64,000 nucleotides of DNA from Meloidogyne chitwoodi. Taxonomy: Eukaryota; Nematoda; Chromadorea; Rhabditida; Meloidogynidae. Positions within the stretch are counted from its first letter, which is position 1. Each line of letters begins with the position of its first letter. Below the pieces are notes generated by a model. It was not told where the DNA came from and did no database searches. It saw nothing but the letters and a program-made list of their open reading frames with translations. The stretch is from NCBI GenBank assembly GCA_015183035.1, contig JACZZP010000013.1:434001-498000 (forward strand). The letters run 5' to 3'. This document shows, piece by piece, positions 17,485 to 23,821 of this stretch. A program made the translations under genes and the position numbers.

Positions 17485-20337
17485 TTATGGTAAATCAAAC
17501 TGTCCACCCTGTGCCAATTCATGTCGCAATACTGCATCAACATCCAAATCAGCAAATGCTTGCTGGTCAACTGGCATTGCATTAACATTTTCCAAATCAA
17601 AAGGAAGAGAAGAAGAAGCTCCTTCATTATTATTAGAAATTAAACAAATTTCATTAGTATTTTCACCATTAATCATTCCTCCATTAGAAAACATCATTTG
17701 TCCATCTCTATTTGAAATTGGATGAATTTGTTGTGAAAAAGTTGCTCGATTCCATTGTTGATAATTATTATCTGGCGAAAAGATTTGTTGTTGTTGGTGT
17801 CCGTTAGTTGTAAATATAGAAACCGGATAAGATTGCGAAGAAATAATAGATGATGAAGATACACTAAAATTAAATATATTCAAGAGTTTTATTGTTTTTA
17901 ATGTTTTTAGTATTTCAGGAAAGTTTTATTTGTTTTTCAATGTTTTCAGTAGTTCCGGAAAGTTTTATTTGTTTTTTTTAATGTTTTCATTATTTCCGGA
18001 AAATTTTATTTTTTTAATGTTTTTATTATTTCCGTAATTTTTTCAGATATGTTTATATTATTCCGGAAATTTGTTTTTGTCTAATTACCTCGCTTGATTC
18101 AATTTCATCGGTGTCATCATTTGCTGATTTGAATTTTCCATTTGCTTTAGTAATAATGGATTTGCTGCCTGCATTTGCGTAGGTAACGGGCCACGCACTG
18201 CACTTAATTCTTGATAGGAGGGCGGTGCAATAATAACCGAAGGTTCTTGTTTAATAATTTTAGAGTGTTGTTGATCATTATCAATTTCACATTTTGGAAC
18301 GACTAGAGGATGAAGGGTATTGATAGAATTTGAAGGAGAAGTGGCAGAGGGAATCAGTGATGAATGACGTTTGTTGACACGAATTAATGCTAAAATAATC
18401 TTTTAAAATTTATATATTTTTTTAATTTTTATACTTCCATTCCCATTTAGTTGAAAAGTTGGCCTCAATGATGGTCGTCGCCCATCCAAGCGCATCTGAC
18501 CTGTTCGGTCAAGCAATTCACTAACTTGTGGATTTAATATTTGTTGTTGTTGTCCTTCCATTTGTTGTTGTTCCATCCATGGGGGGAAGTCAATATCTTC
18601 AATGCAAACAGTTCCAGAAGTCTCAAGGTTTGGAGAGAAGCGAGTGTTGCCTCCAGAAACTGAGAGAGTAGAATTTGCACGAGGCCTGAAAAATCAAAAC
18701 TTGAAGCAAACAAAAAATTAAGATTTAAATAAAATCTAAAGCTTACAACTTGTATAAAAAATTAAAATTAATTAAAAAAATTAACCTGAATACATCAAAA
18801 TTGTTATTATTAGCAGAATTGCCAGTAACAACAATTGGACCTTCTTCTCCTCCACATATATTTCCCATCATTTCTGCTGTCGTTGTCCCTGCTGTTGGCA
18901 TCTCTTCATGACAAATATCATTAGGGAAAGATAAATCCTGCATTGAAGCAGCCTCTATTGAATAACAATTTTCAGAATGTTTCAAATCTTTGTTTAAGTG
19001 TTGTTCTACACGTTTTCGAGCATTTCCACGACGTTTGCGATCCATGAAAGATTTACTAGAATTTTCCATAGTGTTTGCGCGTCGTCGAGGATTACGTCCA
19101 GGTTTTGCTAAACATTTTTATTAGTTAAGAAAATGAAACAAACTTAAAACTACAATGTAAACTTAAAGTATTAATTTAAATTGTAAGTTTAATTTAAAAC
19201 TTGTATTAGATTGTAAACTTGAAAACTTAGATTGTAAACTTGAAAACATATGTTATTAAACCCGAATTAAACACAAAACATTAAACAAGTTTACTAAATT
19301 TGTGGTATAAAAACTTGAAAAGCGCAAACTTAAGTTTTTAAATTAAATATACTAAAACTTGAAATAAAATAAAAGTTTATATAAACTTGATTAAAACAAT
19401 ATTATTTTTAATCTTACCATCAGGATTAATTATCCACCAACTGCTTTTTCCAGCCCCTTCATTCTGAATGCGCATAAAACGACTGTGCAATGAGAGATTG
19501 TGACGGATTGAATTCTGAAAATTTATTTTTTTAAATAAAAAAAATTTATTTTATTATATTTTTATTTATTTATTTTTTATAAATTAAAAAAAAAAAAGTG
19601 AGAAAAGGAAGAAAATACAAGTCAATTCCCCCAAAAAACACCTTCCATCCCTGTGCATCTTCTTGAGTTGAACGTCCACCAAAATAGGGAACATTTTCAG
19701 AAAACCATTGATAAATTTCATTTAATTTTAATTTTCCTTCTGGTGAAGTAATTAATGCTCTAGCAATTAAATCAGAATAAGACTCTTCTCCCCAAGGATT
19801 TGGTTTTCTTCCATAATTATTTGAAGAATTATTAAAATTTAAATTTAATAAATTTAAATTATCATTTAATTTATTATTATTACGACGAATTCTTTTATTA
19901 TTTGTTTGTTTTTTAATTTTTAAAATATTTAATAAAGACGATTTTGTTGAAGAACAATTATCTTCTTCTTCTATTAATGATGATGTTGAAGGTATATTTT
20001 TACAATTATTATTTAATAATAATAATTCTGAAATATTTGGCTGCTTTACTGGCCATGTATGAGAACGAGCACGTTGTTCTGGTTCAAAACAGCAATTTGA
20101 GGAAGAATCACAAAATAAATCATCGTTTATATAGTCATCACTTATTGAATTGTTAGAACGCTGTTTTTGGGTAATTTTAGACTCTGTTAAATTTTGGGGT
20201 GGTCCAGAAGCATTTTCTAATTTATTTTTTGATATTTGTTGCATTGAAGAAAATTTTAAAAAATTTGAGGAAGAAGAAAAAGTTGGAGAAGAAGAAGAAG
20301 AGGTATTATTAGAGGTACTCAAAGTTGGTGGTTCCAT
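17485..20337 (-). CDS. daf-16: DAF-16/FOXO transcription factor, b-type isoform
   Basis: A separate first exon, 20337-19642, starts with ATG and codes 232 residues. It splices in phase to the same exon 19514-19418 used by the a-type form, then to the shared 3' exons, for a total of 681 residues. It has its own Akt site (RARSHTWP, preceded by CCFEPEQ) and its own first half of the forkhead domain (NPWGEESYSDLIARALI to YFGGRSTQEDAQGWK). C. elegans daf-16 also has two alternative half-forkhead exons; this one resembles its b form and the upstream one its a form. The N-terminus is Ser/Asn-rich. The 1.1-kb intron upstream (20338-21489) is the likely internal promoter. The exon ends at a GT following GGATGGAAG, the same position as the a-type exon. 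Confidence 0.93.
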
Positions 20338-23300: not shown

Positions 23301-23821
23301 AGTTAATATTTAAAAAAATAAACTTAAGTTTACAAATGCAACTAAAAACATTATAGGTATTTTATTTATTAAAACAACTAAACCTTGTTGTAATCCATAA
23401 TTTGGTCTTCCGCTTGTATTCATTGTTGTATTTCCAAAATTAACAATTGTATCAGGTAATTGTTGTTTTTGTAAAGACATTTTCCAACAATTTTGTTGTT
23501 GTTGTTTTTCGTTTATTTCACCAAAACTATTAAATGAAGTTAAATAATTGTTATTATTATTTAAATTTGTTGAAGATTCAAATAATTGTGGAGAACTTCC
23601 CCCAACAACAGATGGTGGAGTTTGTGAAGGAAAGAGCCAACGGCACAATGGGGAAGGGGAATGATGATTTTCGGTACTTAGGGCAGAAATTGTTGTTTTT
23701 AATATTTTTGCTGGTGGCAAAGTATTTTGCACAGCAAATTGAATATTATTATTTTTATTATTATTGGGGAAATTTGAGGAAGAATTTGATGATAATGGTG
23801 AAGACGTTGTTGCGTTATTTT
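17485..23821 (-). CDS. daf-16: DAF-16/FOXO transcription factor, a-type isoform
   Basis: Upstream exons 23821-23384, 23124-22664, 22432-22323, 22279-22118 and 21769-21490 splice in phase to the common exons 19514-19418, 19107-18786, 18685-18435, 18389-18089 and 17863-17485. The exon 21769-21490 codes the first half of the forkhead domain (NAWGNMSYADLITQAIF to GDSNSSAGWK); the common exon adds helix 3, NSIRHNLSLHSRF. Three Akt/PKB sites are visible: LPRDRCNTWP, RRRANT after the forkhead, and RPRANS. The C-terminus is VDAVLRHELAQGGQFDLP. In insulin signalling, phosphorylation at these sites holds FOXO in the cytoplasm. The start is uncertain: the first exon is Asn/Gln-rich, open to 23821 behind a possible acceptor, and has no upstream in-frame ATG. 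The first in-frame ATG is at 23480; another possible start is the ATG at 23149, just before exon two. Confidence 0.93.
17890..18075. repeat. TTCCGGAA-centred tandem repeat in daf-16 intron
   Basis: Five degenerate units of about 35-40 bp with the form ATTTCCGGAAAATTTTATTT then TTTTTAATGTTTT fill most of the intron 17864-18088. Confidence 0.75.
20338..21489. promoter_or_regulatory. Likely promoter region of the b-type daf-16 transcript
   Basis: This 1.15-kb interval is an intron for a-type transcripts and lies directly upstream of the b-type first exon. A comparatively GC-rich patch lies at 21290-21420, in otherwise AT-rich DNA. Promoter function is inferred from position only; I see no defined binding site. 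Confidence 0.4.
22119..22278 (-). other. daf-16: daf-16 a-type exon with acidic linker
   Basis: This small exon codes SIYDEDIDDCC and a Gln/Ser-rich stretch ending in FDDFTEEPLSYIE. It links the first Akt-site exon to the half-forkhead exon. Phases 2/2 fit both neighbours. Confidence 0.8.
23176..23330. repeat. AAACTTAAGTTTG tandem repeat in daf-16 intron
   Basis: About five units of 30 bp, each with AAACTTAAGTTTGTTAA followed by an A/T tract, lie in the intron between the first two a-type exons (23125-23383). Confidence 0.8.

What the first reader, a model, noticed from the sequence alone, without database searches (positions are those of the whole stretch)
17485..23821. daf-16 keeps two alternative half-forkhead exons, each with its own Akt site
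Two exons, at 21769-21490 and inside 20337-19642, each encode the first half of the DNA-binding domain and both end GGTTGGAAG or GGATGGAAG immediately before a GT. Both enter the same helix-3 exon in phase 0. One reads NAWGNMSYADLI (a-type), the other NPWGEESYSDLI (b-type). Each is linked to a separate TWP Akt site (RDRCNTWP, RARSHTWP). The same arrangement exists in C. elegans, so an exchange of half a DNA-binding domain has been kept over a deep split. It predicts two promoters with different inputs to the same regulator in a parasite.
Basis: partly seen in the sequence, partly recalled or inferred. Interest (0 to 1): 0.85.

Follow-up and report, generated by a model that had tools for sequence, protein, structure and literature searches.

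The report
Root-knot nematode daf-16 with alternative half-domains
One stress-control gene of a root-knot nematode carries two interchangeable versions of the first half of its DNA-gripping part, each with its own switch site; the layout is real and already known from other nematodes such as C. elegans, so this is a well-preserved new example rather than a new kind of thing.

Summary
On the minus strand lies a complete daf-16/FOXO gene of a Meloidogyne species. Two exons (21769-21490, a-type; 20337-19642, b-type) each encode a 53-residue first half of the forkhead domain and splice in phase 0 into the same recognition-helix exon (19514-19418). Each is tied to its own RxRxxTWP Akt site.

The layout is published for C. 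elegans (daf-16a/b), Strongyloides (fktf-1a/b) and Brugia, so this is a new member of a known kind. I found no description of the exchange for Meloidogyne in a limited open library.

My additions are comparative. The b halves form one clade (45 rows, support 100/99), found in nematode clades III, IV and V but not among the clade I or non-nematode entries seen; this looks like a single ancient duplication. The base-contacting residues named for FOXO1 (N211, H215) sit in the shared exon. Position 205 is serine in 50 of 50 a rows and E, Q or D in 46 of 50 b rows, which predicts the same DNA site with altered affinity. All 8 database models carrying both halves (of 165 proteins) have a before b.

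Two promoters are inferred; no RNA was available.

The parts
23384..23821 (-). a-path coding exon (5' limit and start codon uncertain; the M. hapla model starts inside it at MSLQ...)
   Evidence: open frame, donor gtttag; homology to P0002 begins at MSLQ
22664..23124 (-). a-path exon 2, low-complexity N-terminal region
   Evidence: acceptor ttttag, donor gttagt; aligned with M. hapla P0002
22323..22432 (-). a-path exon with Akt-type site RDRCNTWPM
   Evidence: motif in 35 of 39 nematode a-type entries
22118..22279 (-). a-path exon 4
   Evidence: aligned with P0002
21490..21769 (-). a-type half-forkhead exon; the 53-residue half itself is 21648-21490, donor gtgagg, phase 0
20338..21489 (-). 1152-nt stretch between the a-half and b exons (22.5% G+C), inferred seat of the b promoter
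   Evidence: position as in C. elegans and Strongyloides (PMC2660150); not shown here
19642..20337 (-). b-type first exon: start ATG, Akt-type site RARSHTWPV, basic stretch KRIRRNNNK, 53-residue b half (19800-19642), donor gtgttt, phase 0
19418..19514 (-). shared exon beginning with recognition helix 3 (NSIRHNLSLH)
   Evidence: equals FOXO1 residues from N211
18786..19107 (-). shared exon with second Akt-type site RRRANT
18435..18685 (-). shared exon; third Akt-type site RPRANS spans its junction with the exon before
18089..18389 (-). shared exon
17485..17863 (-). last shared exon, C-terminus ...DVDAVLRHELAQGGQFDLP*

Best explanation
This is the daf-16/FOXO gene of a Meloidogyne species, with no second copy detected. 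It makes two protein classes by alternative first exons. Transcripts starting upstream use the a-path exons and splice the a half (21490) to the helix-3 exon (19514), skipping the b exon, which has no recognised 3' splice site close in front of it. Transcripts starting in the a-b intron begin with the b exon and splice 19642 to 19514. Both proteins share the recognition helix, wings, two further Akt-type sites and the C-terminus, so they should read the same DNA element and answer to the same kinase. They differ in N-terminus, N-terminal Akt/14-3-3 site, promoter, and the first half of the domain (helices 1 and 2 and the approach to helix 3). The b half arose once, by duplication of the a half-domain exon, before clades III, IV and V parted. 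The likely consequence is a second FOXO with the same target motif but altered DNA affinity, and its own place and time of expression. Shown: sequence, exon structure, homology, b halves as one clade. Inferred: promoters, expression, affinity difference, a as the ancestral form.
For: Gene model with GT-AG introns and open frames. Both spliced products hit Pfam Forkhead at 83.2 and 84.4 bits, cut-off 27. The b domain best matches solved structure 2mbf (E 1e-51), then FOXO1/FOXO3; the b half alone matches 2mbf and FOXO chains first. The 2mbf stretch is found whole in the Brugia malayi b-type protein P0050. Half start to NSIRH is 53 residues in all 160 of 165 proteins that have both landmarks. 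The b halves form one clade, 100/99. b-type is seen in 14, 15 and 19 species of clades III, IV and V, and in 0 of 6 clade I species and 0 of 11 outgroups kept. In 8 of 8 proteins with both halves (of 165) the a half is N-terminal. RxRxx[ST]WP precedes 46 of 50 b and 35 of 39 nematode a entries. Position 205 is S in 50/50 a and E/Q/D in 46/50 b; FOXO1 S205N binds DNA much less in vitro while reporter activity is not significantly lowered, and N211 and H215 contact bases (PMC8789783, passages). The Brugia b-type isoform activated less than the a-types in 2 of 3 experiments (PMC12536313, part 1 of 3 read). Same layout in C. elegans and Strongyloides (PMC2660150, passages). A 2017 table prints a M. 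hapla DAF-16 core starting QGWK (PMC5378187, passage), the ending of tylenchid b halves (position 207 is A in 50/50 a rows), while M. hapla P0002 is a-type: both types appear to occur in that species too.
Against: No RNA data. The b 5' end is unresolved: the nearest TTTCAG is 526 nt upstream of the b ATG, three ATGs lie between, and one (20353) overlaps the start out of frame, although C. elegans daf-16b is reported as SL1 trans-spliced (PMC4022319, passages). The promoter scan is bacterial in type and found nothing above chance. The M. javanica b model lacks the W-P of TWP and the basic stretch, and a M. incognita-group model skips the whole domain after the same point, so the b N-terminus may differ or be misannotated in that group. 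Motif misses: 4 of 50 b (M. javanica; three fused models) and 4 of 39 a entries. The tree has 53 columns, its bootstrap had not settled, and a rows are not separated from arthropod FOXO. Absence from clade I rests on capped protein lists, not genomes. One DNA contact suggested for FOXO1, L183, lies in the exchanged half, though it is L in every row of both types.
Confidence: 0.92

Rival explanations
1. The two halves are mutually exclusive internal cassette exons of one transcript, chosen by splicing rather than by separate promoters.
For: Both halves leave in phase 0 for the same acceptor. The b reading frame is open 12 nt upstream of its ATG.
Against: None of the 3' splice-site patterns scanned lies close before the b exon; the nearest TTTCAG ends at 20863, 526 nt away (other acceptor spellings were not scanned). 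b-type relatives start with their own Met and N-terminus. In C. elegans the b form has its own promoter.
Confidence: 0.04
2. The b exon is a relict that is no longer used in Meloidogyne.
For: b evolves faster than a: mean identity 0.760 against 0.886 over 105 pairs of 15 species, lower in 91 of 105. M. javanica and M. incognita-group models are irregular just after RARSYT.
Against: No stop or frameshift in 232 codons, codon-position bias in the half, 47/53 identity to M. javanica, intact donor.
Confidence: 0.03
3. Some transcripts include both halves in tandem (a half, then b exon, then helix 3), as several database models depict.
For: 8 of 165 database proteins, in 6 genera, carry both halves in the order a, b; phases allow it.
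Against: The models look like gene-finder chaining: P0009 runs from the a half into VKMNDSLD, and C. elegans b starts MNDSIDDD; P0014 and P0028 run straight into a methionine; in P0006 and P0037 the a half is cut short. The a half would lack its partner helix.
Confidence: 0.01

Closest known systems
C. elegans daf-16 (isoforms a and b)
   Different: C. elegans also has upstream d/f isoforms, and SL1 sites are reported for each class (PMC4022319, passages); I found no d/f-like N-terminus here (one loose pattern) and no leader-type site near the b start.
Strongyloides stercoralis fktf-1a/fktf-1b
   Same: Also clade IV; a-specific exons 1-3, a large intron, then b-specific exon 4 (PMC2660150, passages).
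   Different: Intron about 6 kb there; 1152 nt between the a-half and b exons here. A b-specific promoter fragment and Akt-site dependence were tested there, not here.
Brugia malayi Bma-daf-16 isoforms (its 'a' is the b-type)
   Same: Large 5' exon carrying the N-terminal part of the domain (PMC12536313, part 1 of 3 read); b-type DNA-binding domain solved as 2mbf, whose matched stretch is in the Brugia protein P0050.
   Different: Filarial b halves lie on a longer branch of their own; an N-truncated third isoform is reported there.
Meloidogyne daf-16 in print: MiDaf16-like genes (PMC7181638, passages) and the plant-parasite review PMC5378187 (passages)
   Same: Same genus. The review's table prints a M. 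hapla core QGWKNSIRHNLSLHSRF, which has the b-type ending.
   Different: The words isoform, exon and splic do not occur in either main text; the half-domain exchange is not described in the passages seen.

Membership tests
FOXO forkhead proteins | Forkhead domain (Pfam PF00250) | tested here: met
   83.2 and 84.4 bits, cut-off 27, for both spliced products
FOXO forkhead proteins | Closest to FOXO rather than other Fox classes, including the FOXO-length stretch before helix 3 | tested here: met
   b half alone: 2mbf E 8.8e-21, FOXO chains 2.1e-11 to 1.9e-9, next FOXP1 2e-7 over residues 7-42 only
FOXO forkhead proteins | Pfam PF16676 (FOXO-specific C-terminal family; name recalled) | tested here: not met
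   Not reported for either product at E <= 0.001; the precomputed column also lacks it for nearly all clade III-V nematode rows listed, so it does not discriminate there
nematode daf-16 a/b isoform pair | Two half-forkhead coding exons entering one helix-3 exon in the same phase | tested here: met
nematode daf-16 a/b isoform pair | Each half groups with its own type across nematodes | tested here: met
   b one clade 100/99; WINDOW_b with M. javanica, Globodera and Heterodera b (97/91); WINDOW_a with two Meloidogyne a rows (95/86)
nematode daf-16 a/b isoform pair | Separate RxRxxTWP site with each half | tested here: met
   window; relatives: 46 of 50 b, 35 of 39 a
nematode daf-16 a/b isoform pair | b first exon lies downstream of the a half, before the shared exons | tested here: met
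   same order in 8 of 8 fused models
nematode daf-16 a/b isoform pair | Two transcripts with separate 5' ends | not testable with these tools
   no RNA data; b promoter not identified

The most novel reading that the evidence does not exclude
The b half is a single-origin invention on the stem of clades III-V. An exon duplication used the intron that divides the FOXO DNA-binding domain just before helix 3, leaving base recognition fixed and replacing the part that tunes affinity. It created a second FOXO of the same motif but different binding strength inside one gene, and was then retained in all three clades, parasites included. In that reading the daf-16a/b pair is a naturally kept half-domain swap that tunes occupancy rather than target choice.
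Probability: 0.45. Interest if true: 0.5.

Novelty: new member of a known kind. Interest (0 to 1): 0.3.

Why it matters
daf-16/FOXO is the output of insulin signalling that governs arrest and stress resistance in nematodes. Knowing that a root-knot nematode keeps both half-domains says that expression or silencing studies in the genus should separate the two forms: a probe in the shared exons reports both, one in a half-exon reports only one. The comparative result (one clade of b halves, named base contacts shared, position 205 changed) turns a vague isoform difference into a binding test on purified domains. The fused database models, and a review table that lists a b-type core for M. hapla beside a-type cores without remark in the passage seen, warn that this gene is easily misread.

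Tried and rejected
Chance or pseudogene: rejected (and homology).

A second FOXO copy in the genome: the b exon protein found only itself and the a exon. The Pfam scan found 16 forkhead matches, three of them in this gene (C5:455493-455636, 453642-453785, 453416-453550); the other 13 were not examined further.

Self-regulation: GTAAACAA occurs 6 times in the window against 6.33 expected. Three sites cluster at 24370-24974, upstream of the a-path exons, but the total is at chance, so not pursued.

Bacterial-type promoter scan of the a-b intron: 7 found, 7.3 expected, not informative for a nematode. Rfam: 0 matches. tRNA: 0.

A d/f-like N-terminus in Meloidogyne: one loose pattern hit only three Meloidogyne a-type entries.

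Structure prediction of M. javanica P0001: mean pLDDT 50.8, pTM 0.34. The b half region is about 83-93 by tens of residues, the shared part falls from 86 to about 50, and the wing strands are not formed. No fold search was made on it; the solved b-type relative 2mbf was relied on.

Region search with the Ascaris b half: 37 proteins from 46 candidates, all named ones nematodes of clades III-V, but it missed known b types such as Brugia and M. javanica, so its silence on clade I is weak. (b isoform; best 120 of 1455 listed; only the 7976 candidates sharing most words scored) lists no Trichinella or Trichuris.

Rows dropped before counts: of 166 halves kept by the filter 100 were named and used, leaving out unnamed metagenome rows and all but 11 non-nematode rows; three proteins have no recognisable half (P0005, P0045, P0089); the cut-short a halves of P0006 and P0037 failed the filter. 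The filter itself asks for a 53-residue half ending near GWK; the unfiltered spacing is. Identical halves were left out of the tree (80 rows). Clade assignment of genera is recalled. The species pairs mix two daf-16 copies in Bursaphelenchus.

Paper searches on FOXO1 contact residues gave 0 papers with one wording and 1 with another.

Full report
WHAT IS THERE. The window lies at G000:C5:434001-498000 of a 47.48-Mb, 30-contig assembly. The closest proteins are from Meloidogyne javanica, M. hapla and M. enterolobii, so it is a root-knot nematode. Assembly size would fit M. chitwoodi, but that is recall, not a result. On the minus strand, 23821-17485 holds a complete daf-16/FOXO gene. The a path uses exons 23821-23384, 23124-22664, 22432-22323, 22279-22118 and 21769-21490. 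The b path begins with exon 20337-19642. Both continue through 19514-19418, 19107-18786, 18685-18435, 18389-18089 and 17863-17485. The start of the a path is uncertain: the M. hapla model starts within the first listed exon.

The two half exons end ...TGGAAG before GT, both in phase 0, and both enter the NSIRHNLSLH exon. The halves are 53 residues each, 23/53 identical; shuffling one gave at most 11 in 20,000 trials. Third codon positions are G+C-poor compared with first and second. RDRCNTWPM belongs to the a path, RARSHTWPV to the b exon. Two more Akt-type sites (RRRANT, RPRANS) are in the shared part.

RELATIVES. Two protein searches returned 1455 and 2110 hits, 120 listed each. After dropping unnamed rows, rows without a recognisable half and most non-nematodes, 50 a-type (39 nematode, 11 outgroup) and 50 b-type (all nematode) halves remained. 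b-type occurs in 14 clade III, 15 clade IV and 19 clade V species. The clade I entries (Trichinella, Trichuris, 6 species) and the 11 outgroups show only a-type. Fourteen species show both. Without the filter, the distance from half start to NSIRH is 53 in all 160 of 165 proteins with both landmarks. In the tree of 80 different halves, the 45 b rows are one side of a branch with support 100/99, on a branch of 0.76 changes per site; nematode a rows are not separated from arthropod and tardigrade FOXO. With 53 columns and an unsettled bootstrap the inside of the tree is not to be read closely, but b against the rest is clear. The simplest account is that a is the ancestral FOXO half and b a single derived duplicate. 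Because absence in clade I comes from capped protein lists, the date is provisional. A search with the Ascaris b half alone also returned no clade I entry but missed known b types.

ORDER AND ANNOTATION. Eight of 165 database proteins contain both halves, and in all eight a comes first. P0009 runs from its a half into VKMNDSLD, matching the C. elegans b start MNDSIDDD; two others run straight into a methionine. These are best read as gene-finder fusions, but they show independently that the order a, b, shared occurs in 6 genera. In M. javanica and the M. incognita group the b N-terminus stops at RARSYT and then jumps, in one case over the whole domain. That marks either an intron there or a wrong model; it is a result against a tidy conserved b Akt site within Meloidogyne. 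A review's table prints a M. hapla core QGWKNSIRHNLSLHSRF (PMC5378187, passage). In my rows QGWK is the ending of Meloidogyne, Globodera and Heterodera b halves, and M. hapla P0002 is a-type, so M. hapla too appears to hold both types.

RATE. Over 105 pairs of 15 species with both halves, mean identity is 0.886 for a, 0.760 for b and 0.904 for 45 residues of the shared part; b is lower than a in 91 of 105 pairs. b is constrained, but less than a.

HOW IT PROBABLY WORKS. In FOXO1, helix 3 is the main contact surface and N211 and H215 make base-specific contacts (PMC8789783, passages). N211 is the first residue of the shared exon. The exchanged half carries helices 1 and 2 and the approach to helix 3. 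Residues N158, W160, G161, S164, Y165, I169, L183, Y187, F197, G208, W209 and K210 are the same in at least 49 of 50 rows of each type. L183 is one of two residues suggested there to contact DNA; that N158 and Y165 touch the backbone is recalled. Position 205 is S in 50 of 50 a rows and E, Q or D in 46 of 50 b rows; position 206 is S in 50 of 50 a and A in 37 of 50 b. FOXO1 S205N had much reduced DNA binding in vitro but no significant loss of reporter activity (PMC8789783). So b is expected to see the same motif with changed affinity, and the reporter result warns that the effect in cells may be small. In Brugia, the b-type isoform activated a DBE reporter less than the a-types in two of three experiments (PMC12536313, part 1 of 3 read), though N-termini differ too. 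The solved domain 2mbf is of b type (its stretch is in Brugia P0050) and shows that such a composite folds.

PROMOTERS. In C. [quoted passage not shown] Here the gap between the a-half and b exons is 1152 nt. No trans-splice-like TTTCAG lies within 526 nt of the b ATG, and an out-of-frame ATG at 20353 overlaps the start. Two promoters are therefore likely by analogy but unproven.

KNOWN OR NEW. The half-domain exchange is stated for C. elegans and Brugia (PMC12536313), and a- and b-specific exons for Strongyloides (PMC2660150). Another paper describes daf-16b as lacking part of the domain (PMC6668909, passage), and a Haemonchus study counted a single daf-16 isoform (PMC4741068, passages). For Meloidogyne, three searches of the open library (4, 25 and 2 papers, of which I opened PMC2683825, PMC7181638 and PMC5378187) gave no description in the passages seen; the last two have no 'isoform', 'exon' or 'splic' in the main text. 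Hu 2010 and Massey 2003 are not held and were not read. The claim of absence is limited to those searches. Human FOXO1 is likewise bisected by the PAX3-FKHR break in its intron 1 (PMC3683129, passages); that the position is identical is recalled.

VERDICT. Real, intact, well conserved, and a new member of a known kind.

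Noticed in passing
32267-32527: Inverted repeat with 107-nt arms 92% complementary; the genome search gave 80 matches at about 40 places including its own, most in both orientations (a lower bound), so it looks like a foldback or MITE-like element.
   Followed up: partly
53576-53876: 34-nt tandem array, 8.9 copies, 95% alike, with TTCCGGAA cores; similar words in arrays at 10683-10789, 17885-18034 (inside the last daf-16 intron) and 52818-52929.
   Followed up: no
29619-29754 and 23176-23297: 30-nt tandem arrays built on AAACTTGAA/AAACTTAAG words, 99% and 91% alike; the second lies in the first listed daf-16 intron.
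   Followed up: no
P0001, P0005 (M. javanica, M. incognita group) against window 20337-19642: b-type models end their N-terminus at RARSYT and then skip W-P; P0005 joins straight to KPGRNP without any forkhead half.
   Followed up: partly
database proteins P0006, P0009, P0010, P0012, P0014, P0022, P0028, P0037: Nematode FOXO models carrying both an a half and a b half, always in that order; probable annotation fusions.
   Followed up: partly
PMC5378187, Table 1 (passage): The review's M. incognita and G. pallida 'DAF-16' cores (WGWQNSIRHNLSLHDCF, SGWKNSVRHNLSLNKCF) differ from the daf-16 cores seen here and look like other Fox genes.
   Followed up: no
20353: ATG 16 nt upstream of the b start, out of frame and overlapping it, 14 codons.
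   Followed up: no
24370-24974: Three of the window's six GTAAACAA (DAF-16 element) copies cluster upstream of the a-path exons; the window total is at chance.
   Followed up: partly
40968-41303 and 46551-46958: Neighbouring open frames matching methyltransferase (minus strand) and, below the curated cut-offs, C2H2 zinc finger (plus strand) Pfam models.
   Followed up: no
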